Shown here: positions 160 through 8,338 of the stretch, one piece after another
How the letters are laid out: every line of letters begins with the position of its first letter
Position numbering within the stretch: the stretch's first letter is position 1
Virus record (IMG/VR): IMGVR_UViG_3300025853_000035
Location: 64,001-128,000 of that record
Direction: 5' to 3' (one strand)
Source of the DNA: a virus
DNA length: 64,000 nucleotides
Notes under the pieces: model-generated
Told to the model about the DNA's origin: nothing
What the model saw: the letters and a program-made list of their open reading frames with translations, nothing else
Database searches by the model: none
Program-made: the position numbers and the translations under genes

Positions 160-237
160 TGGAACCCCGTGAGGGATTCGAACCCCCGACCCTGCCGGTA
201 GAAGCGGCGCGCTCTTGATCCGCTGAGCTAACGGGGT
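160..237 (-). tRNA. tRNA-Arg(TCT)
   Basis: A cloverleaf with a 7-bp acceptor ACCCCGT/ACGGGGT, a GCTC-type D arm, anticodon loop CTTCTAC and a canonical TTCGAAT T loop. CCA is encoded at 160-162. The top pair of the anticodon stem is a C-A mismatch. Confidence 0.88.
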
Positions 238-245
238 GTGATGTC

Positions 246-319
246 TGGTGCCGAGTGCCGAATCGAACGGCCTCTCTCGCGTTTCAAACGAGCGCTTCGA
301 CCTGCAAAGCTTACTCGGC
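246..319 (-). tRNA. tRNA-Phe(GAA)
   Basis: Acceptor GCCGAGT/ACTCGGC, anticodon stem CTCGT/GCGAG, loop TTGAAAC (anticodon GAA) and T loop TTCGATT. Discriminator A and an encoded CCA (246-248). Confidence 0.88.
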
Positions 320-327
320 ATAGAGGG

Positions 328-408
328 TGGAGCCGCTGACAGGATTCGAACCTGCATTTGCATCCAGTTACCTTTCTCTCCGTTCGTAGCGGAGGGGGTT
401 ACAGCGGC
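328..408 (-). tRNA. Atypical tRNA, probably tRNA-Arg(ACG)
   Basis: It has a perfect acceptor stem GCCGCTG/CAGCGGC, a good T arm with TTCGAAT loop and an encoded CCA. The only hairpin that works as an anticodon arm is CTCCG/CGGAG around CTACGAA, giving anticodon ACG. That leaves just a few bases where the D arm should be and about 22 bases between anticodon and T arms. It could be a D-armless tRNA, a rearranged gene or a dead tRNA. Confidence 0.5.
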
Positions 409-416
409 ATTGAAAC

Positions 417-494
417 TGGTCTCGCCGACGGGATTCGAACCCGCATTGACCTGCTTGAAAGGCAAGGTTCTTAGGCCATTTAGAAGACGGCGAG
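417..494 (-). tRNA. tRNA-Glu(TTC)
   Basis: Acceptor CTCGCCG/CGGCGAG, anticodon loop CTTTCAA on stem CTTGC/GCAGG, T loop TTCGAAT, discriminator A and encoded CCA (417-419). Confidence 0.88.
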
Positions 495-495
495 A

Positions 496-570
496 TGGTA
501 GCGCATGGGGGAATCGAACCCCCGTCTCAGGCTTGAGAAGCCCGTGTCCTGTCCGCTAGACGAATGCGCC
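496..570 (-). tRNA. tRNA-Glu(CTC)
   Basis: Acceptor GGCGCAT/ATGCGCT (first pair G-U), anticodon stem CGGGC/GCCTG around TTCTCAA, T loop TTCGATT and encoded CCA. It is the second Glu isoacceptor next to the TTC one. Confidence 0.85.
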
Positions 571-577
571 ATGGAAA

Positions 578-653
578 TGGCGAGAACGACGGGGTTCGAA
601 CCCGCGACAACCAGATAGACAATCCGGTGCTCTACCAACTGAGCTACGTTCCC
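578..653 (-). tRNA. tRNA-Asp(GTC)
   Basis: A canonical cloverleaf: acceptor GGGAACG/CGTTCTC, D arm GCTC/GAGC, anticodon loop TTGTCTA on CCGGA/TCTGG, T loop TTCGAAC. The discriminator is G, as expected for Asp, and CCA is encoded. Confidence 0.92.
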
Positions 654-659
654 ATATGC

Positions 660-735
660 TGGAGCAGACGGCGAGGATCGAACTCGCGCTGCCGGAGGGT
701 GGAAACCTCCCGCTCTACCGCTGAGCTACGCCTGC
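660..735 (-). tRNA. tRNA-Gly(TCC)
   Basis: Acceptor GCAGGCG/CGTCTGC, D arm GCTC/GAGC, anticodon loop TTTCCAC on GGAGG/CCTCC, T loop TTCGATC and encoded CCA. Confidence 0.92.
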
Positions 736-748
736 ATTGCATAAAAAC

Positions 749-823
749 TGGAGCGGGCAACGGGGTTCGAACCCGTGTCTCTGGACTGGCAGACCAGTGC
801 TCTTCCTACTGAGCTATACCTGC
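749..823 (-). tRNA. tRNA-Gly(GCC)
   Basis: D arm GCTC/GAGC, anticodon loop CTGCCAG on CTGGT/TCCAG (one U-U mismatch), T loop TTCGAAC and encoded CCA. The acceptor has one A-C mismatch. Its 5' end overlaps the last codons and stop of the HNH gene (814-823). Confidence 0.85.
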
Positions 824-1200
824 ATTTGCCTTTTCTGATGAGGATACAATCGGCTGGTGTAACCCATTTCCGCGTATGTCTTCCGGCGGTGACAGTTCGC
901 GCACCGGACGACACACTTATTGATCTCCTCGATCAGTCGAGGTAACTTTGTTCCGTCTCTGACTGCCTTAGAGACATTGAACTCCTTGGTGGCCCGATCG
1001 ACATGATCAAACTCAAGGACGATTATGTCATCTTCCCCACAGTCTATGCACGGGTGCTTGCTGAGATAGTCGATAACGTATTCTTGCGCTAACTGCCTAC
1101 GAAGAGCTTGCGCCTCAGCGGTGACTTTCCGCATCTTGGCACCGTTCTCGGCATAGTAGTTTTTCGCATAGGCACGTTTCGCCTCATCATCCCAAGCCAA
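814..1200 (-). CDS. HNH endonuclease (homing type)
   Basis: A 128-residue protein with a basic helical N-terminus followed by an HNH core. A zinc pair C-I-D-C, a central FDHVD motif and a second C-A-N-C-H knuckle ending in HRRK are visible. HNH proteins of this kind nick or cut DNA and often spread as free-standing homing endonucleases. I chose a TTG start because AAGGAG lies 5 bases upstream; an upstream extension would run into tRNA-Lys(TTT). The stop codon sits inside the 5' end of tRNA-Gly(GCC), so the gene fills the gap between two tRNAs exactly. Family is clear; the homing role is inferred from position. Confidence 0.75.
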   Translation of the reverse strand: MAWDDEAKRAYAKNYYAENGAKMRKVTAEAQALRRQLAQEYVIDYLSKHPCIDCGEDDIIVLEFDHVDRATKEFNVSKAVRDGTKLPRLIEEINKCVVRCANCHRRKTYAEMGYTSRLYPHQKRQMQV

Positions 1201-1217
1201 GCTGTCTCCTTTGTGTT

Positions 1218-1293
1218 TGGTGAACCGGGTGGGCCACGATCCCACAACCTTCGGGTTAAAAGCCCACTGCTCTGCCAATTGAGCTACCGGTCC
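1218..1293 (-). tRNA. tRNA-Lys(TTT)
   Basis: Acceptor GGACCGG/CCGGTTC, D arm GCTC/GAGC, anticodon loop CTTTTAA and encoded CCA. The T stem GTGGG/CCCAC is perfect but its loop is ATCGTGG, not TTCGANN. The last anticodon-stem pair is mismatched. Confidence 0.8.
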
Positions 1294-1310
1294 AAAGACC
1301 GGGAACAACG

Positions 1311-1340
1311 AAAAACGCCCCACCGGGGGCGGTAGGGCGT
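1311..1340 (-). terminator. Rho-independent terminator, minus strand
   Basis: Read on the minus strand, ACGCCC pairs with GGGCGT with an inner ACCG/CGGT stem, followed by a run of T. It lies between tRNA-Lys(CTT) and tRNA-Lys(TTT) and could limit read-through from upstream. Confidence 0.6.
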
Positions 1341-1359
1341 CTAAATATCGATGCTGATT

Positions 1360-1435
1360 TGGAGGATCGACTGGGGCTTGAACCCAGCACCTGCGGAGTA
1401 AGAATCCGCCGCTCTACCTACTGAGCTATCGATCC
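1360..1435 (-). tRNA. tRNA-Lys(CTT)
   Basis: Acceptor GGATCGA/TCGATCC, D arm GCTC/GAGC, anticodon loop TTCTTAC on GCGGA/TCCGC, T loop TTCAAGC and encoded CCA. Confidence 0.9.
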
Positions 1436-1458
1436 GCTAAAACAGCACCGATAGCTAG

Positions 1459-1534
1459 GAGCACTACCGGATTAGAGGCTAAAACCTCGTTCGCCGCGTT
1501 CCCGGCGATCTCGTTTGAATCCGAAGCGTTCCAT
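1459..1534 (+). other. Possible class II tRNA remnant
   Basis: On the plus strand GGAGCAC can pair imperfectly with GCGTTCC. Between them lie a GAGG/CCTC arm around CTAAAA and a GCCG/CGGC hairpin in the place of a long variable arm. The anticodon loop is one base short and the T arm does not fold. I read it as a decayed Leu-type tRNA or a chance fold. Confidence 0.2.
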
Positions 1535-1653
1535 GGTAGGTCTCAAAAAATCCTGTGAGGCATAATTGCCGTGAATGAAGCCGAACTATACACAGCGACA
1601 GTCTGGCTGTCAACAAGAAAATTCAGAAAGGCGAACTTTTTTTTCCGGCCCGG

Positions 1654-2175
1654 TCAGAACCAGCAGTCGTTGAAGCATTGCTCCGCGATCTCGCGGTGCG
1701 TGGGAAAGCACAGATCAGCGACCTGCTCATACTCAGTGAGGAGGCCGAACTCCATGTTCTCCGGGCACAGCCGAAGCCGCTCATAGTGCCCGGCGGTCAG
1801 CACCCATGGGTTACGGAATACCGCCATCGTCTGCGCGCCGCCCGCTACCGGATAGCTCTGCACATATTCGAGGCTGTCGGCGGTTATGGTCCGGCCGGTC
1901 TCTTCCAGCCACTCACGACAAGCGGCTTGTTCGAAGGACTCACCGCGATTGACATGCCCGCCCAAGAACGCCCAGCCGCCACGGTGAGGCTCGATCGCCC
2001 GCCGGGCCATGAGAAGACCGCGCCGGCCGATGCCGACGCGAACCCGCTGGAGAACGACGACGACACCGGTGGGACTTCCCCACGTCATCGCCGAGCAGCC
2101 GGGGCACTTCATGGGATACTCGTGATCCACATGAGCCGTCCCGCAGGTCGAACAGAACAAATCCATCACGCTCAC
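1654..2175 (-). CDS. Nudix hydrolase with N-terminal zinc ribbon
   Basis: A 173-residue protein. C8/C11 and C24/C27 form a zinc ribbon, and a full Nudix box (G73-x5-E79-x7-R87-E88-x2-E91-E92-x-G94) follows. Nudix enzymes split a nucleoside diphosphate linked to another group, such as oxidised dNTPs, NAD(H) or ADP-ribose; zinc-ribbon Nudix proteins include NADH pyrophosphatases. The substrate cannot be read here. The GTG start overlaps the stop of the K+ channel gene (GTGA), implying translational coupling, with AGGA about 9 bases upstream; an ATG three codons in is the alternative. It is the last gene of the minus-strand YgiB/YgiC cassette. Confidence 0.85.
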   Translation of the reverse strand: MSVMDLFCSTCGTAHVDHEYPMKCPGCSAMTWGSPTGVVVVLQRVRVGIGRRGLLMARRAIEPHRGGWAFLGGHVNRGESFEQAACREWLEETGRTITADSLEYVQSYPVAGGAQTMAVFRNPWVLTAGHYERLRLCPENMEFGLLTEYEQVADLCFPTHREIAEQCFNDCWF

Positions 2176-2552
2176 TTTCTATCGTCCTGCTGACGATGCA
2201 GCATCTCGCGGATCGCCGCGAGGTCGTTCTTGATCTGCTCCTGCTCAGCATGGGTGAACGCATCACTATCCACGATCAGCTTGGCCGACATGATTGCCGT
2301 CATCACGGGAAAGGCGAAGCCCGGCCCGAAGTGCATGAGGAAGATAGCCACCCCTCGGCCGACCACCGTGACGGGATACATATCGCCGTATCCTGTCGTG
2401 GTCGCGGTGGTGAAGGCCCACCACAAGGAATCGCCAATCCCATATTTGGCTTCGGCCAGATCAAACAGCCCGGCGGCGAGGACCACGACAATGCCGTAGA
2501 CGATCGCGACGGTCAGGAAGCTCCGGCCGAGGAGGTGGACTATCTTTCTCAT
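2172..2552 (-). CDS. Miniature potassium channel
   Basis: A 126-residue membrane protein: TM1 at about residues 10-33, a pore helix, selectivity filter TTTGYGD, then TM2 at about 65-92 and a charged helical tail that could form a coiled coil. This is the KcsA-type 2-TM plan, with a tetramer in the inner membrane passing K+. It is near the lower size limit for such channels, like the algal-virus Kcv channels. Its stop is fused to the Nudix start, and its ATG overlaps the end of the gene at 2549. The motif is unmistakable; the role during infection is unknown. Confidence 0.9.
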   Translation of the reverse strand: MRKIVHLLGRSFLTVAIVYGIVVVLAAGLFDLAEAKYGIGDSLWWAFTTATTTGYGDMYPVTVVGRGVAIFLMHFGPGFAFPVMTAIMSAKLIVDSDAFTHAEQEQIKNDLAAIREMLHRQQDDRK

Positions 2553-2806
2553 CCCAAACCTCGCTCGCTGAGAAGGATTTTCTGGACGGACTGACCCACC
2601 ACCGAAAGGCGGAAGGTCCGATAGCCGTTATCGCTGCGAGGCCCCTCCTCGACGAGCGCCGGCCGCCGCAGCGTGTCCTTGGTCAACCGGATCGCACAAG
2701 ACTCGCTGCACCCGAGGATGCAGAAGTTCTCGTCGAGGTTGATAACCGTCGAAATTTGGCTGCGCTTGAGGCGGCCGGCGATGGAGGCGGGCGAGACGGG
2801 GGCCAT
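2549..2806 (-). CDS. Hypothetical protein in YgiB/YgiC cassette
   Basis: An 85-residue protein of unknown family. Its N-terminal half is basic with possible helix-turn-helix character (residues 6-25), and a short Cys cluster C-S-E-S-C lies near residue 33. It overlaps the K+ channel start by 4 bases (ATGA) and follows the ATP-grasp gene by a few bases, so it is co-translated with the cassette. No function assigned. Confidence 0.65.
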   Translation of the reverse strand: MAPVSPASIAGRLKRSQISTVINLDENFCILGCSESCAIRLTKDTLRRPALVEEGPRSDNGYRTFRLSVVGQSVQKILLSERGLG

Positions 2807-2810
2807 CGCG

Positions 2811-3614
2811 TCAGCCCCCGATCACATGCGGCACGAACTTTGCCGTGTTGCTCGTGATGAGGCCGTCCTCGCGGATGCCGATACCGCACGGCTCGCCATC
2901 AACGATCCAGCTACCGATCACCGGGAAGACGCCGGGCGCGGTTTCCGGGAGACGATACATCTCCTGATAGACGTGCCCTTCCTCGCCGTAGTCGCCGCCG
3001 GTGGCCGCCAGCACATCACGATCCACGATCTCGATGTTGGCTCCCTCACGAGCCAGCAGCGGCTTCTTGACATAGGAGCCGGTCGCCGGCTTCTCGAAGC
3101 TGCTGTGGAGCAGGAAGGGGTTGCCGGGATCGAGCTTGGAGAGCAGGGGCAGGATGCCCTTGTTGCTCCACATCATCTTCCAGATCGGCTCCAGCCAGAC
3201 CATCGTATCGACGCTGTTGAACACGGCGTCGGCGTAGTCCTCGTTGACCAGCCATTCCCACGGGTAGAGTTTGAACAGGGTCGTGATGACCTCTTCGTCC
3301 AAATCAACGAAGCGCCCATCAGCCGACAGACCGATGTCTTCGATGAGGATGACCTTCGAGCCGATACCGCCGGCTGCTGCGGTGTCCCGCAGATAGGCGG
3401 TCGTCACGGTGTCTTCACCGGCATCGTCGAAGAAATGCGTGAAGTGCATTTCGCCGTTGGGGAGGAAGGGGCGGATGTCCGCCCACTTGGTGACCAGATG
3501 CTCGTGGATGGAGTTGAACTGGTCGAGGTCCGGGAAGACCTGCTCCTTCCAGCGCCACTGGATCACCGAGGCTTCCAGCAGCGAGGTCGGGGTGTCGCAA
3601 TTGAACTCGAACAT
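2811..3614 (-). CDS. YgiC-like ATP-grasp (glutathionylspermidine synthase-like), C-terminal part
   Basis: This frame carries most of a YgiC/YjfC family protein. Hallmarks run along its length: CDTPTS near the start, FKLYPWEW, SNKG.LPLL, KKPLLAREGAN, YGEEG and GSW..GEP.GIGIRED near the end. In Escherichia coli YgiC is an ATP-grasp ligase related to the synthetase domain of glutathionylspermidine synthase, and it lacks the amidase domain. The N-terminal part is in another frame at 3634-3960. The two join across a C6 run near 3670 if one base is skipped or removed, giving about 383 residues, the normal family length. The ATG at 3614 is internal to the family alignment and probably not a natural start. 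Confidence 0.8.
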   Translation of the reverse strand: MFEFNCDTPTSLLEASVIQWRWKEQVFPDLDQFNSIHEHLVTKWADIRPFLPNGEMHFTHFFDDAGEDTVTTAYLRDTAAAGGIGSKVILIEDIGLSADGRFVDLDEEVITTLFKLYPWEWLVNEDYADAVFNSVDTMVWLEPIWKMMWSNKGILPLLSKLDPGNPFLLHSSFEKPATGSYVKKPLLAREGANIEIVDRDVLAATGGDYGEEGHVYQEMYRLPETAPGVFPVIGSWIVDGEPCGIGIREDGLITSNTAKFVPHVIGG

Positions 3615-3633
3615 CTTGGGTTCGGTCCGGCCG

Positions 3634-3960
3634 TCATAACCGAAGTCGAACCGGCCGTAGTTGAGGGCAGGGGGGTTCCTGATCCCACGCCCGGCGGATG
3701 GCGGCGTGCGCCTTCTGCGGGATGCCCATCTTCGTCAGCCATTCCCCGCTCTTGTCCCCGACGATGACATCGCCGGCTGCAAGCAGGAGGTTGTAGACGC
3801 TGCGGGTGGCCTCATCGAACAGGTCGATCTCGCCCGGCGCGAAGGAATAATAGGTTCCCTCCCGCCAGTAGGGATCGACGCCGTCGGTGTGCCAGATCAG
3901 TCCGTCATCGGCGACGGCCTGCTGCCAGTTGAGGCGCTGGGCGACCTGCTTACGGATCAA
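3634..3960 (-). CDS. YgiC-like ATP-grasp, N-terminal part (frameshifted)
   Basis: Residues 1 to about 93 match the start of YgiC-type proteins (R..W, H.DG..YW.E..YY.F...EID.), ending at IPQKAH..IRRAWDQEPP. After the proline codons at the C6 run (minus strand GAA CCC CCC TGC) the frame departs into unrelated residues and stops. Skipping one base continues as A-L-N-Y-G-R-F-D-F, exactly as expected for the family. It may be a programmed +1 shift, a one-base indel in a homopolymer, or a sequencing error. It overlaps the lipoprotein stop by 4 bases, matching the ygiB-ygiC gene order in enterobacteria. Confidence 0.75.
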   Translation of the reverse strand: MIRKQVAQRLNWQQAVADDGLIWHTDGVDPYWREGTYYSFAPGEIDLFDEATRSVYNLLLAAGDVIVGDKSGEWLTKMGIPQKAHAAIRRAWDQEPPCPQLRPVRLRL

Positions 3961-4346
3961 CCGCCGACACTCCCGAATGCCGACTTACCGAAGCCGCCGC
4001 GCGAGACAGCCGCCGCACGGGTCACGGACGAGGAAGCCGGGGCGTGGAAGTAGGTGGCACCGGGCGTGCGAGCGAAGCTGCCGCCACGCACCGGATCGCC
4101 GTGATAGGGGACTGCGGCCGACTTGCCGAGGTAATACCACATGAAGGCGTTGCCGGCTCCGCCGCCACGGTTCTGCTGGCAATAGCTGTCAGGCACGCGG
4201 CGCTTGTTCTTGTCGGTGCAGACCGCCGTGTTGCGGTCGGAATAGACGTTGTAGGACTCGTCCCACTGGTTGGCCGGGCGGCCACAGGCGCTTACCGCCA
4301 ACGCTGCTGCCAGCGTGGTGGTCAGCAGAAAAGACTTCTTCCGCAT
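3957..4346 (-). CDS. YgiB-like (DUF1190) lipoprotein
   Basis: A 129-residue protein with a lipoprotein signal peptide: MRKK, a hydrophobic stretch, then lipobox L-A-V-S-A-C with the acylated Cys at about residue 21. The mature part is rich in Gly, Ser and Tyr and ends with the VSRGGFGKS-type tail that marks YgiB/YjfM proteins. It would be anchored in an envelope membrane facing the periplasm. It is the first gene of the cassette, directly upstream of and overlapping the YgiC-like gene, and has its own promoter at 4378-4405. Confidence 0.8.
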   Translation of the reverse strand: MRKKSFLLTTTLAAALAVSACGRPANQWDESYNVYSDRNTAVCTDKNKRRVPDSYCQQNRGGGAGNAFMWYYLGKSAAVPYHGDPVRGGSFARTPGATYFHAPASSSVTRAAAVSRGGFGKSAFGSVGG

Positions 4347-4377
4347 AGTGATTCCCTCTGAAATTGTGAGTGAATCG

Positions 4378-4405
4378 CTGATACTTTAGAGACGCATAAT
4401 GTCAA
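4378..4405 (-). promoter_or_regulatory. Promoter of the YgiB/YgiC/K+ channel/Nudix cassette
   Basis: TTGACA (4400-4405), a 16-bp spacer and TATCAG (4378-4383), reading towards the lipoprotein gene. The sequence just upstream of the -35 is CATTTTTAC, a relative of the phage-wide upstream element. Confidence 0.65.
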
Positions 4406-4460
4406 GTAAAAATGACTGTGCCGCGAAACCTCAAAGAGGCTCGCGGCACATGGAAGGGTA

Positions 4461-4534
4461 TGGTTGTTCTGGGAAGAATCGAACTTCCATCTGCCGATTA
4501 TCAGTCGGATGCACTACCGTTGTGCTACAGAACA
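4461..4534 (-). tRNA. tRNA-Ile(GAT)
   Basis: Acceptor TGTTCTG/CAGAACA, anticodon loop CTGATAA on CCGA/TCGG, T loop TTCGATT, discriminator A and encoded CCA (4461-4463). Confidence 0.88.
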
Positions 4535-4543
4535 TCAACCAAA

Positions 4544-4621
4544 TGGCTGGCGTAGCTGGATTCGAACCAGCCTCAATCTCGGTTAACAGCCGAGCGCCTT
4601 CACCTAGAAGACTATACGCCA
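4544..4621 (-). tRNA. tRNA-Asn(GTT)
   Basis: Acceptor TGGCGTA/TACGCCA, anticodon loop CTGTTAA on CTCGG/CCGAG, T loop TTCGAAT, discriminator G and encoded CCA. Confidence 0.9.
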
Positions 4622-4628
4622 ATGAAAC

Positions 4629-4704
4629 TGGTGGAACAGGAGGGGATCGAACCCTCTACCTCCGGGGTGCAAAGCCGACGCTCTCCCAAGTGAGCTACTG
4701 CCCC
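4629..4704 (-). tRNA. tRNA-Ala(TGC)
   Basis: Acceptor GGGGCAG/CTGTTCC, D arm GCTC/GAGC, anticodon loop TTTGCAC, T arm GAGGG-TTCGATC-CCCTC and encoded CCA. The anticodon stem has one C-C mismatch next to the loop. Confidence 0.85.
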
Positions 4705-4815
4705 ATAAATCTGAGGGTCGGAAGGTTCCCTACTCCGCCGCCGAAGCGTGCGTAAGGGTCAAGGTTATCTCCCGGTTGCCTCTGCTCGCCAATGTTGTCC
4801 CGAGCAGACCCAAAA
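4705..4815 (-). other. Structured non-coding spacer between tRNAs
   Basis: No gene is seen. The minus strand holds a strong CTGCTCG/CGAGCAG hairpin with a 12-base loop. The ends GGGTC and GACCC could pair, giving a tRNA-sized folded unit. It has no recognisable T arm or anticodon arm, so I do not call it a tRNA. Confidence 0.3.
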
Positions 4816-4816
4816 C

Positions 4817-4892
4817 TGGTGCTTCGTGTAGGTCCTGACCCTACGGCCTTCCGCATGTCATACGGATGCTCTACCAACTGAGCTAACGAAGC
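4817..4892 (-). tRNA. tRNA-Val(GAC)
   Basis: Acceptor GCTTCGT/ACGAAGC, D arm GCTC/GAGC, anticodon loop ATGACAT on TCCGT/GCGGA and encoded CCA. The T stem GTAGG/CCTAC is perfect but its loop is GTCAGGA, lacking the usual TTC. Confidence 0.8.
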
Positions 4893-4901
4893 ATATTCGG
4901 T

Positions 4902-4976
4902 TGGTGCTCGATGGAGGGACTGATCCTCCGGCCTCCGGCATGTGAAACCAGCGCTCTACCATTAAGCTAATCGAGC
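4902..4976 (-). tRNA. tRNA-Val(CAC)
   Basis: Acceptor GCTCGAT/ATCGAGC, anticodon loop TTCACAT on CTGGT/GCCGG and encoded CCA. The T stem GGAGG/CCTCC carries a non-canonical loop ATCAGTC. Confidence 0.8.
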
Positions 4977-4986
4977 ATGTTGAAAC

Positions 4987-5057
4987 TGGTAGCAGTGAGA
5001 GGATGTGCGCCTCTGGGTAGCAGGCTTATGAGGCCCGCCCCGAACTGATCCACTGCT
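4987..5057 (-). tRNA. tRNA-Met(CAT), atypical
   Basis: Acceptor AGCAGTG/CACTGCT, anticodon loop CTCATAA on CGGGC/GCCTG and encoded CCA. The D region is only about 13 bases with no clear stem, and the T loop is CGCACAT. It could serve Met, or Ile if C34 becomes lysidine. Function is uncertain. Confidence 0.65.
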
Positions 5058-5064
5058 ATGAAAC

Positions 5065-5141
5065 TGGTCTAGCTGGCAGGATTTGAACCTGCGACCTCAC
5101 CCGTCCGAGGGGCACACGCTACCAGACTGCGCTACAGCTAG
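5065..5141 (-). tRNA. tRNA-Pro(CGG)
   Basis: Acceptor CTAGCTG/CAGCTAG, anticodon loop CTCGGAC, T arm GCAGG-TTCAAAT-CCTGC, discriminator A and encoded CCA (5065-5067). Confidence 0.88.
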
Positions 5142-5147
5142 ATGAAA

Positions 5148-5223
5148 TGGTCAAGGTGGCCGGGATCGAACCGACGACTTCCTGCTCCCAAAGCAGGCGC
5201 TCTACCAACTGAGCTACACCGAG
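5148..5223 (-). tRNA. tRNA-Pro(TGG)
   Basis: D arm GCTC/GAGC, anticodon loop TTTGGGA on CCTGC/GCAGG, T loop TTCGATC and encoded CCA. The acceptor CTCGGTG/CACCTTG has two adjacent mismatches (positions 2 and 3). Confidence 0.8.
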
Positions 5224-5227
5224 AAAC

Positions 5228-5253
5228 GAAAAAGGGCCGCTTTCGCGACCCTT
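5228..5253 (-). terminator. Rho-independent terminator, minus strand
   Basis: AAGGGTCGC and GCGGCCCTT pair around a GAAA tetraloop, followed by a T run. It closes the short transcript from the promoter at 5429-5457 and lies just upstream of tRNA-Pro(TGG). Confidence 0.75.
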
Positions 5254-5286
5254 TCGAAAAATCCCTTATGAGACGAGACGACCGGG

Positions 5287-5379
5287 TCAGTCGTCCTTCG
5301 TCGGGAGCGCGCACGCAATCACGGCCGGGACCATATTGGCCGGCGCTGCGATCATGTTGATGGCGGGAATGTTGCGCAT
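5287..5379 (-). CDS. Possible 30-residue hydrophobic peptide
   Basis: The minus strand reads a 30-codon frame (starting MRNIPAINMIAAP, ending LPTKDD) between a clear promoter (5429-5457) and a strong terminator (5228-5253). A weak GAG lies 7 bases upstream of the ATG and an AGGA further up. The peptide has a hydrophobic central part. The tight promoter-frame-terminator arrangement is the main support; a small non-coding RNA is the alternative. Confidence 0.35.
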   Translation of the reverse strand: MRNIPAINMIAAPANMVPAVIACALPTKDD

Positions 5380-5428
5380 GGGAAGCTCGTGAAATCCTGA
5401 AAAGCGGAGAACCGCTGTTGAAGTCCGA

Positions 5429-5457
5429 ATGATAATTGAAACTTGACTGGATGTCAA
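5429..5457 (-). promoter_or_regulatory. Promoter, minus strand
   Basis: TTGACA (5452-5457), 17 bp, TATCAT (5429-5434). The -35 overlaps an inverted repeat CTTGAC/GTCAAG, a possible operator. Confidence 0.7.
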
Positions 5458-5489
5458 GAGAAAAATTACACTGGCTATGAAGACACTGA

Positions 5490-6490
5490 ACCTCGCGAAT
5501 ACGCGGGTTAGGTCGCATGTCGGGTAGTTCCGTCGGTCAACGGCTCAGCATCTACAAAGCGAGTGAAATTGTGGTCGGCTTGCTGGCACCAATCCAGAAG
5601 ACAGGTCCGCAGACCTGACCAACCAACCACGGTGATGAATATAGACAGGCTGAGACTACACCCGTTGCGATCTGTCGTTCGGAGGATTACGGAACCCTTG
5701 CGAGGCACCTTGCCACCTTATCCACCAAGCCCTCTTGCGAGTAGCCCGGTCCCAGATCAACGCCGCCTATTTTTCCCGATTCTCACGGGGCCGCTGGCAT
5801 TAGCGGCGACACTGCATGATATTCGGCGATTCCCAGACCGTTGACGTGTTACCGCCATTAAGCCCCCGCGACGGGGCAACGAACTTTCTTTCACCAACCA
5901 CTCTTCGCTTTGCCGGCTAGGAGCAGACCGCATTGGGCGAACCCTGCGGTATTAGGCGTCTTTCACATACAGTCGAAGCAATCTTTGCGTTTTGATATGA
6001 ACTGCTGGGTTCGAACCAGCGATCCACGGATTAAGAGTCCGTTGCTTTACCACTAAGCTAAGTTTGCAAGCCACCGAGACGAGCTACCTCCTAGTTCCAC
6101 TGATGTTTCCACCTGCGGAATGCTAGTCGCCTCATGTCCGTCATGTCGCTAAACACTACCAAGACCGTCGAGCAGGACCTTCACCCTACCAAACTGATCA
6201 TTGCTCTTGACCGCTAAGTCTTGAACTGATGACCTTGTGCTTTATCATCCGCTGCCGCAGGTTAGACACAAGCTCCGGGTTCTACTCCGGCGTTCGAGGT
6301 CACCGATCTGGCTCTCCTCTATCCCCTCAAGGGCCTTGTCCTGCTAACAGCCTAGCTCCCGTTACCAGAAGCGATCCTCGCGGACCTGACTGCACTTGCT
6401 TGAATTGACCGGCAAGCCGGCGGAGTTATGTGGCCATACCTCCTTTACGTTGGTTACCCAACGCTATCCCCCTCAAGCGGGGTGTTCCTG
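5490..6490 (-). ncRNA. Large structured non-coding RNA, GOLLD/ROOL-like candidate
   Basis: About 1 kb without a plausible protein frame, next to tRNA genes in a phage. It starts just downstream of a TTGACA promoter (6493-6521) on the minus strand. Many local helices are visible: CGTTGG-GTAA-CCAACG with a GNRA loop, CCGG-CTTG-CCGG, CCCC/GGGG around GCTTGA, CCCTTGAGGG, and near the far end AACC-CGCG-TATT-CGCG-AGGTT. A tRNA-Lys-like domain without CCA lies inside it (5996-6067). Very large ornate phage RNAs (GOLLD, ROOL) are known for tRNA-rich phage regions, and I recall that some GOLLD RNAs enclose a tRNA. I cannot match a consensus by eye, so class is inference and both ends are approximate. 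Confidence 0.55.
5996..6067 (-). tRNA. tRNA-Lys(CTT)-like domain inside the large RNA
   Basis: D arm GCTT/AAGC, anticodon loop CTCTTAA on ACGGA/TCCGT and a perfect T arm GCTGG-TTCGAAC-CCAGC. The acceptor pairs at only about 4 of 7 positions and no CCA is encoded, unlike the other tRNAs here. A good tRNA-Lys(CTT) already exists at 1360-1435. It may be a tRNA-like domain of the large RNA rather than a working tRNA. Confidence 0.6.
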
Positions 6491-6492
6491 AG

Positions 6493-6521
6493 CCTCTAAC
6501 AACTGATTCGAGCAATGTCAA
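6493..6521 (-). promoter_or_regulatory. Promoter of the large structured RNA
   Basis: TTGACA (6516-6521), 17 bp, TAGAGG (6493-6498), reading into the protein-free stretch. The -35 and weak -10 match the phage-wide promoter type. Confidence 0.6.
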
Positions 6522-6522
6522 G

Positions 6523-6776
6523 TCATAATTGCAAGAGGCAATCCAAAACTTACCGCGTGACAGCCTCACTTGCGCTGGGATGGCCTCCCGATTAGGGGCC
6601 GGCGATCTCGGAGCTTCCTCCGTTCTACCCGCCCTTTACTCGGAGCGTATCCATACCAGACCGGCCAGTGCTTTCGTTCATGTCCAAGTTCGACACTACT
6701 TGTCCGCAAAGTGACTCCGGCTGAGTCTGCCCCTCGGTAAATCTTGGAGCGTTCCGCATCGCTGCGGTGTGAAAGG
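6523..6776 (-). ncRNA. Second non-coding transcript candidate
   Basis: About 250 bases downstream of the promoter at 6778-6806. One frame from an ATG overlapping the -10 runs about 51 codons and another about 74, but neither has a Shine-Dalgarno or a protein-like composition. Short repeats such as GGAG..CTCC allow local folding. I see no known RNA family; a leader continuous with the large RNA downstream is also possible. Confidence 0.3.
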
Positions 6777-6777
6777 G

Positions 6778-6806
6778 CATCTACATTCACAATTGCAGTA
6801 TGTCAA
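6778..6806 (-). promoter_or_regulatory. Promoter, minus strand
   Basis: TTGACA (6801-6806), 17 bp, TAGATG (6778-6783), preceded by GCATTTTTTAA. It sits just downstream of the small gene at 6837-7007 and its T-rich tail. Confidence 0.6.
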
Positions 6807-6836
6807 TTAAAAAATGCAGTGCCCTCAAAAAAAAAG

Positions 6837-7007
6837 TTAGGCCGCTTCCCGAACCTGCTTCACGGCGCTCTTGTCGATGGTCTGGGGCGCATAGTCAGTC
6901 TCGGCCTCGCGCACGGTCAGGTTGAAGCCGTTGATCGCGAGCACGTCGAACCACGTCGCATCATCCAGTTTGTTGAAAGCCACCTGCTGGCCAACCTCGG
7001 GGTCCAT
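6837..7007 (-). CDS. Small hypothetical protein (56 aa)
   Basis: A 56-codon frame starting MDPEVGQQVAFNKLDDATWF, with AAGGAG 7 bases upstream of ATG and TAA followed by nine T residues. Composition is protein-like and acidic/amphipathic. It is the last gene of the minus-strand block and is preceded by a GC hairpin at 7042-7065. I do not recognise the family. Confidence 0.65.
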   Translation of the reverse strand: MDPEVGQQVAFNKLDDATWFDVLAINGFNLTVREAETDYAPQTIDKSAVKQVREAA

Positions 7008-7653: not shown

Positions 7654-8280
7654 TCAGAGCGCTCCGACCAAGCTCCGCGCGTCGTCAGACACTTCGATAT
7701 ACTGTTCGGTCGTCTCAATGCTCGCGTGGCCCATCAACCGCTGAACGTCACGCAACGAACAGTGGTGGTGGTTCGCGCTCCGGGCAAGTGTGGTCCCGAA
7801 GGTGCGTCGTCCAGAGTGAGTGGACGCGCCCTCGAAGCCGCCGGACTGGATCAGGCGGTTGTAATAGGCACGCAGTGCTGTGGGGGACATCGCCTTGTGG
7901 GCGGCATGGGCAGGGATCGCTTCCCCGCGCTCCAGCTTCCAGCGCCATGGCTGTGCTGAGATCGCAACAACATCCGCCGAGGGATACGCCTTGCGGAACG
8001 CTTGCAGGCATTCCTTGACAAGGCCGTTCATGGGGACGGTGCGTTCGCGCCGCCCCTTGCCCACGTCGGAGAAGATGTTGATGTCTTTGGCGATGGTGCC
8101 GGTGGTGGTGAGCATCGCGGCGATCTTGATCTTGGCGATCTCGCCTACGCGCAGACCAGCCTTGAACGACAGGGCGACGATCAGGCGATCGCGGACCGGC
8201 ATCGGGCTGTTTTCGGTGACGTGCTTGAGCAGCTTCTGGAACTGCTTCTCGTCGAAAGTCTTTGCTCGCTTCTTTGCCAT
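7654..8280 (-). CDS. Tyrosine recombinase, catalytic domain only
   Basis: A 208-residue protein with the tyrosine recombinase active-site set: R44 (GLRVGE), K75, H155-x2-R158 (STHSGRRT), H185 (LMGHAS) and nucleophile Y194. Typical phage integrases of about 350-400 residues add an N-terminal core-binding domain; this one has only the catalytic domain, like the solitary recombinases of some plasmids and phages. It could integrate or excise the phage, resolve concatemers or act on an invertible site. The ATG at 8280 has GGAG about 8 bases upstream; a longer start into the promoter is unlikely. Confidence 0.85.
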   Translation of the reverse strand: MAKKRAKTFDEKQFQKLLKHVTENSPMPVRDRLIVALSFKAGLRVGEIAKIKIAAMLTTTGTIAKDINIFSDVGKGRRERTVPMNGLVKECLQAFRKAYPSADVVAISAQPWRWKLERGEAIPAHAAHKAMSPTALRAYYNRLIQSGGFEGASTHSGRRTFGTTLARSANHHHCSLRDVQRLMGHASIETTEQYIEVSDDARSLVGAL

Positions 8281-8301
8281 TGTCTGTCTCCATGTGATTG
8301 A

Positions 8302-8338
8302 CGAATCGCTGGATAAGGCGATTCGCAACCGGAGTCAA
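8302..8338 (-). promoter_or_regulatory. Promoter and operator-like dyad of the recombinase gene
   Basis: TTGACT (8333-8338), 16 bp, TTATCC (8311-8316). The -10 lies between the arms of a perfect inverted repeat CGAATCGC (8302-8309) and GCGATTCG (8318-8325), a plausible repressor site. Confidence 0.55.

What the first reader, a model, noticed from the sequence alone, without database searches (positions are those of the whole stretch)
5490..6490. About 1 kb of promoter-driven, highly structured non-coding RNA in a phage tRNA region (GOLLD/ROOL-like candidate)
Seen: no protein-like frame, a TTGACA promoter at its 5' end, many local helices including GNRA and UUCG-like capped hairpins, and an enclosed tRNA-Lys-like domain lacking CCA. 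Known: GOLLD and ROOL are large ornate RNAs typical of phage tRNA regions. Inference: this is a member of one of these classes or a new large RNA class.
Basis: partly seen in the sequence, partly recalled or inferred. Interest (0 to 1): 0.85.

Follow-up and report, generated by a model that had tools for sequence, protein, structure and literature searches.

The report
GOLLD cage RNA with tRNA-shaped insert
This phage carries a gene for GOLLD, a known giant RNA that assembles into hollow cages, and inside it sits a tRNA-shaped piece whose amino-acid-carrying end is worn away; the same pattern recurs in many other phages, which suggests the piece is a built-in part of the cage RNA rather than a working tRNA.

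Summary
Window 5647-6133 (minus) matches Rfam GOLLD (RF02032) over the whole model, 140.1 bits, E 1.9e-38. This is 10 bits below Rfam's cut-off of 150, so a default scan misses it. ROOL, HEARO and every other large-RNA family gave nothing. With its 5' domain the RNA runs from about 6486 to 5647 (minus). Six relatives show strong covariation: 96 of 247 pairs with two-sided changes, against 40 in shuffles. A conserved TTGACA promoter lies at 6521-6493. The stretch 5490-5640 is not conserved. GOLLD is a known phage RNA, and a GOLLD of another source forms a 14-mer nanocage. tRNAs inside GOLLD linkers are also already mentioned in the literature. What I add: among 28 distinct linker tRNA-like domains, the outer three acceptor pairs are complete in 2 (166 of 176 other tRNAs of the same loci) and CCA follows in 2 (163 of 176). 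The D, anticodon and T arms stay paired, with compensatory changes, while anticodons and loop sizes drift. So it is a selected tRNA-shaped domain that probably cannot be excised or charged, not a tRNA gene. One lineage carries it circularly permuted. What it does inside the cage is inferred, not shown.

The parts
5647..6486 (-). GOLLD RNA, full extent: 5' domain plus conserved 3' domain; 5' end inferred from the promoter
   Evidence: Rfam match; conservation limits; covariation
5647..6133 (-). conserved 3' region of GOLLD, including the linker
   Evidence: RF02032 model 1-416/416, 140.1 bits, E 1.9e-38
6134..6486 (-). 5' domain of GOLLD (not covered by the Rfam model)
   Evidence: aligned in six relatives with covarying helices 2-18
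5996..6067 (-). tRNA-Lys(CUU)-shaped domain in the linker; T, D and anticodon arms intact, acceptor pairs 2 and 3 mismatched, no CCA
   Evidence: Rfam tRNA 62.3 bits, ARAGORN, arm-by-arm count
6493..6521 (-). predicted GOLLD promoter TTGACA-N17-TAGAGG
   Evidence: conserved upstream of GOLLD in L003, L101, L102, L103
6535..6771 (-). element A: separate conserved structured RNA or extra leader upstream of GOLLD, absent from two relatives
   Evidence: 65-86% identity over most of its length in L003, L102, L103, L106; 13 of 67 predicted pairs with two-sided changes; no Rfam match
6778..6806 (-). predicted promoter of element A, TTGACA-N17-TAGATG
   Evidence: TTGACA conserved; TTGACA-N17-TATCTG/TATTTG in relatives

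Best explanation
Shown: the region encodes a GOLLD RNA of about 840 nt on the minus strand of a phage tRNA region, with a tRNA-shaped domain in its variable linker. Shown by comparison: in related phages this domain keeps its D, anticodon and T arms, its elbow motifs and the inner acceptor pairs, but loses the outer acceptor pairs and CCA, while its anticodon changes freely. Inferred: losing the acceptor end stops RNase P and tRNase Z from cutting the domain out and so severing GOLLD, and stops it being charged. The domain therefore stays attached. Inferred from the published cryo-EM structure of another GOLLD: the RNA assembles into a 14-mer cage with the linker inside, so a cage would hold up to 14 attached tRNA shapes. 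Most likely function (about 0.3): the cage presents uncuttable tRNA mimics that bind a protein or ribosomal site recognising the tRNA elbow late in infection.
For: GOLLD identity. Structure. tRNA domain at the same linker site in 28 distinct sequences from 14 clusters at 80% 3'-domain identity. Outer three acceptor pairs complete in 2/28 against 166/176 (Fisher 2e-22) and CCA in 2/28 against 163/176 (5e-21); T-loop TTCRA and a D-loop GG in 28/28. In one clade of 8 distinct linkers the D, anticodon and T stems have no unpaired cell, with two-sided changes in 8 of 14 pairs; acceptor pair 2 is unpaired in 8/8, and anticodon loops are 7 or 8 nt. Cage and linker position: PMC12286853.
Against: The CM score is below Rfam's gathering cut-off. 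Two linkers (L102, L106) are followed by CCA and each has a single acceptor mismatch; L105 likewise has only one. Counts treat related sequences as separate. Many GOLLDs (Streptococcus, Acinetobacter, huge phages, DSS3P8) have no tRNA in the linker, so the domain is not needed for GOLLD itself. Cage assembly of this RNA, its expression and any binding partner are untested.
Confidence: 0.85

Rival explanations
1. The linker holds a working tRNA gene: the GOLLD transcript is cut by RNase P and tRNase Z to release tRNA-Lys(CUU), like any member of a tRNA array.
For: Rfam tRNA 62.3 bits and an ARAGORN call; canonical Lys loop CUCUUAA; two relatives are followed by CCA.
Against: No CCA while all 16 other window tRNAs have it; acceptor 5/7 paired; 0/28 linker domains have a complete acceptor stem; the window already has a tRNA-Lys(CUU) at 1360-1435; some relatives have 6- or 8-nt anticodon loops. 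Cutting would sever GOLLD.
Confidence: 0.06
2. The linker domain is a decaying pseudo-tRNA, a neutral passenger tolerated in a variable loop.
For: Missing acceptor end, drifting anticodon, and its absence from many GOLLDs; mycobacterial authors call theirs a pseudo-tRNA (PMC6582537).
Against: Decay should hit all stems alike: T stems are complete in 26/28 and acceptor stems in 0/28. Compensatory changes keep D, anticodon and T stems paired within one clade. Elbow motifs 28/28.
Confidence: 0.15
3. The tRNA shape is a decoy for host anticodon nucleases, protecting the phage's tRNAs.
For: Intact anticodon arm; tRNA array units are called a putative antidefense system (abstract of PMC12803027); Lys and Arg-UCU are frequent among the anticodons.
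Against: Anticodons range over many isotypes and some loops are 6 or 8 nt, which a specific nuclease would not be expected to recognise.
Confidence: 0.12
4. It is a new large RNA class or ROOL, not GOLLD.
For: No match at Rfam's gathering threshold.
Against: Full-length RF02032 match at E 1.9e-38 with no other large-RNA family at E<=10. Relatives bridge the score: 120-142 bits in close kin, up to 226 bits in other linker-tRNA GOLLDs.
Confidence: 0.02

Closest known systems
GOLLD RNA (Rfam RF02032; env-38 structure in PMC12286853)
   Same: full 3' domain match, separate 5' domain, variable linker between the conserved parts, phage tRNA region
   Different: scores below the curated cut-off; the linker is a folded tRNA-shaped domain, whereas the solved env-38 has a disordered 42-nt linker
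GOLLD with pseudo-tRNA in mycobacterial tRNA clusters (PMC6582537)
   Same: tRNA-like gene inside GOLLD; no separate tRNA product detected there
   Different: different hosts; the acceptor-end pattern was not analysed in the parts of that paper read here
Erythrobacter phage XM05 and vB_EliS-L02 GOLLD (unannotated in both records)
   Same: same locus type and same linker site
   Different: linker anticodons CUU and UUC; vB_EliS-L02 lacks element A
ROOL RNA
   Same: large phage RNA, tRNA islands, cage with internal linker (PMC12286853)
   Different: no sequence-structure match here
YrlA, tRNA-mimicking bacterial Y RNA
   Same: a tRNA-shaped module inside a longer RNA (from memory; title cited in PMC9569102)
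   Different: unrelated RNA

Membership tests
GOLLD | match to the RF02032 covariance model over its full length | tested here: met
   1-416/416, 140.1 bits, E 1.9e-38
GOLLD | score above Rfam's gathering cut-off (150 bits) | tested here: not met
   140.1 bits; the two nearest phages score 120 and 142. A curation threshold, not a biological feature; I file it as GOLLD on E-value, full coverage and homologues scoring up to 226 bits
GOLLD | 5' domain plus conserved 3' domain joined by a variable linker | tested here: met
GOLLD | covariation-supported structure | tested here: met
   96 of 247 pairs with two-sided changes, shuffles 39.9 +/- 4.3
GOLLD | phage or prophage location near tRNA genes | tested here: met
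   16 other tRNAs at 160-5223 on the same strand; the record is a virus contig
GOLLD | 14-mer nanocage | not testable with these tools
   known for env-38 only (PMC12286853)
GOLLD | expression rising at lysis | not testable with these tools
   reported for other GOLLDs (PMC12286853)
ROOL / HEARO | match to the Rfam models | tested here: not met
   no match at E<=10 over 4400-7000
functional tRNA (linker domain) | cloverleaf D, anticodon and T arms | tested here: met
   62.3 bits; all three arms fully paired
functional tRNA (linker domain) | seven-pair acceptor stem | tested here: not met
   pairs 2 and 3 mismatched; complete in 0/28 linker domains
functional tRNA (linker domain) | encoded CCA, as in this phage's other tRNAs | tested here: not met
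   UCA instead; 16/16 others CCA

The most novel reading that the evidence does not exclude
Phage GOLLD RNAs of one large group carry, in the linker thought to lie inside the cage, a dedicated tRNA-shaped domain kept by selection but stripped of its outer acceptor stem and CCA so that RNase P cannot release it and it cannot be charged. A permuted version joins the tRNA shape to GOLLD through its variable arm instead. The cage would thus hold up to 14 captive tRNA mimics.
Probability: 0.5. Interest if true: 0.7.

Novelty: new member of a known kind. Interest (0 to 1): 0.5.

Why it matters
The function of RNA nanocages is open. A rule for what sits in the linker (tRNA body kept, acceptor end removed, anticodon free to drift) narrows the possible cargo functions and makes them directly testable: RNase P resistance, elbow binding, linker swaps. 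It also shows that Rfam's cut-off hides a clade of GOLLDs, and that tRNA finders list these domains as ordinary phage tRNA genes (as in MN602268 and MT188704), which inflates phage tRNA repertoires.

Tried and rejected
ROOL, HEARO and a new class: no Rfam match or contradicted by the GOLLD match. Coding: no conserved frame, no Pfam hit. Linker tRNA as a recent copy of the phage's own tRNA: best identity 67%, to tRNA-Asp. Pairing of the left linker flank with the downstream GCAAAG motif in place of the acceptor stem: attractive in several sequences (TTGC/GCAA, TTCG/CGAA) but not universal, so not claimed. The genome contigs pattern hits were chance (no GOLLD). Most hits of the loose viral pattern were chance too: of its 59 contigs, 2 were confirmed as GOLLD (G015, G053). 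A plasmid search with a mycobacteriophage GOLLD found nothing. The MAFFT alignment of linker domains misaligned the anticodon loops, so arms were counted by script instead.

Full report
WHAT IS THERE. The window is bases 64001-128000 of a 151-kb virus contig. Its nearest cultured relatives by DNA are Erythrobacter phages XM05 and vB_EliS-L02. Sixteen tRNAs lie at 160-5223 on the minus strand, and a seventeenth, tRNA-Lys(CUU)-like, at 5994-6068. A default Rfam scan finds only tRNAs. With the permissive setting, GOLLD (RF02032) matches 5647-6133 minus over the whole model at 140.1 bits, E 1.9e-38, against a cut-off of 150. The tRNA-like domain is aligned to the unstructured linker between the first hairpin and the AAAGCAAAAGUC motif of the model. 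XM05 (120 bits), vB_EliS-L02 (142) and Sinorhizobium phage Phosso (187) carry the same arrangement. The phage has one copy; the more distant kin Lacusarx and vB_CbaS-RXM have none.

EXTENT. Identity to relatives is mostly 55-94% from 6500 to 5651, with 5'-domain blocks down to 42%, and collapses below 5650. The RNA is therefore about 6486-5647, and 5490-5640 is not part of it. A TTGACA-N17-TAGAGG promoter at 6521-6493 is conserved in L003, L102 and L103, with TTGACG-N17-TAAATA in L101. In six aligned relatives 95.3% of pair cells are standard and 96 of 247 pairs change on both sides. Shuffles give 39.9 +/- 4.3 and slid partners 15-23. The structure was derived from the same alignment, which favours it, but the margin is large. 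Helices 22-24 of that count are the D, anticodon and (extended) T arms of the linker domain, with 2/4, 4/5 and 4/10 pairs changed on both sides.

THE LINKER DOMAIN. GOLLDs were collected by pattern scans and similarity and then confirmed with RF02032. At the same linker site, 28 distinct tRNA-like domains were compared with 176 other tRNAs of the same loci. Per-pair acceptor pairing from the outside in is 0.54, 0.43, 0.54, 0.79, 0.89, 0.89, 0.93, against 0.95-0.98. The outer three pairs are complete in 2/28 against 166/176 (Fisher 2e-22). CCA follows in 2/28 against 163/176 (5e-21). T stems are complete in 26/28 against 170/176. TTCRA in the T loop and GG in the D loop occur in 28/28. These p-values ignore kinship: the 28 fall into 14 clusters at 80% identity of the 3' domain and 8 at 70%, and in 12 of the 14 no member has complete outer pairs. 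Anticodons vary widely (Lys, Arg, Glu, Asn, Ile, Leu, Thr, Trp, Ser types). ARAGORN reads two linkers as having 6- or 8-nt anticodon loops (L104, L105). In one clade of eight distinct linkers no D, anticodon or T pair is broken, 8 of those 14 pairs show two-sided changes, the inner four acceptor pairs hold, acceptor pair 2 is unpaired in all eight, and loops are 7 or 8 nt. Neutral decay would not break one end only.

A PERMUTED CASE. Two contigs that are 99.97% identical (L098/L100, one lineage) have a linker reading T arm, 3' acceptor, CCA, 5' acceptor, D arm, anticodon arm. ARAGORN finds nothing in it as it stands, but finds tRNA-Ser(UGA) with a seven-pair acceptor once the parts are rejoined at the variable arm. 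I chose the rejoining after seeing the sequence. Independently, the permuted-tmRNA model weakly matches this linker (28 bits, E 6e-6). A normal tRNA-Ser(UGA) lies just downstream. Mycobacteriophage Rope has D, anticodon, variable and T arms in its linker without an evident acceptor stem (by eye). Streptococcus, Acinetobacter and huge-phage GOLLDs have AT-rich linkers without tRNA.

MECHANISM. [quoted passage not shown]). Known: in Mycobacterium the tRNA inside GOLLD was called a pseudo-tRNA and no separate product was detected (PMC6582537). Established knowledge: RNase P and tRNase Z recognise the acceptor-T stack and its ends. Inference: an intact tRNA here would be cut out and would sever GOLLD, so the acceptor end is lost while the elbow is kept. 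The most likely use is as a captive tRNA mimic inside the cage; anticodon drift speaks against decoding and against a specific anticodon-nuclease decoy. The function step is a guess at about 0.3.

VERDICT. The acceptor-end rule and the permuted case were not found in the papers searched. The library lacks the 2020 mycobacterial GOLLD paper and I did not read the original 2009 description, so priority is not certain.

Noticed in passing
window 6535-6771 (-): Element A: an unannotated conserved structured RNA upstream of GOLLD with its own conserved TTGACA; present in XM05, L102, L103 and L106, absent from vB_EliS-L02 and L101; no Rfam match, no conserved frame.
   Followed up: partly
L100 1556-1675 and L098 (same lineage): GOLLD linker that reads as a circularly permuted tRNA-Ser(UGA) with intact acceptor stem and CCA in its loop; the permuted-tmRNA model hits it weakly.
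   Followed up: partly
L114 about 1890-2010 (Mycobacterium phage Rope): Linker with D, anticodon, long variable and T arms but no evident acceptor stem; conserved in 11 records of these phages.
   Followed up: partly
G000:C1:58055-58362 (outside the window); L105, L115, L116, L178: Phages with GOLLD often also encode a permuted two-piece tmRNA, in roseophages directly after GOLLD.
   Followed up: partly
window 5230-5457 (-): Strong promoter (TTGACA-17-TATCAT, 11/12) and intrinsic terminator bracket a ~170-nt stretch with a 56-aa ORF (5287-5457) without Pfam hit, just before tRNA-Pro.
   Followed up: partly
window 7654-8328 (-): Tyrosine recombinase (Pfam Phage_integrase, E 3.5e-24) near GOLLD; XM05 and vB_EliS-L02 have one annotated in a similar place.
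   Followed up: partly
window 814-1323 (-): ORF inside the tRNA cluster with CxxC...CxxCH and HNH-like look, no Pfam hit; HNH genes accompany GOLLD in mycobacterial tRNA clusters (PMC9569102).
   Followed up: partly
window 2811-3614 (-): Glutathionylspermidine synthase domain (E 8.8e-96) within the tRNA region.
   Followed up: no
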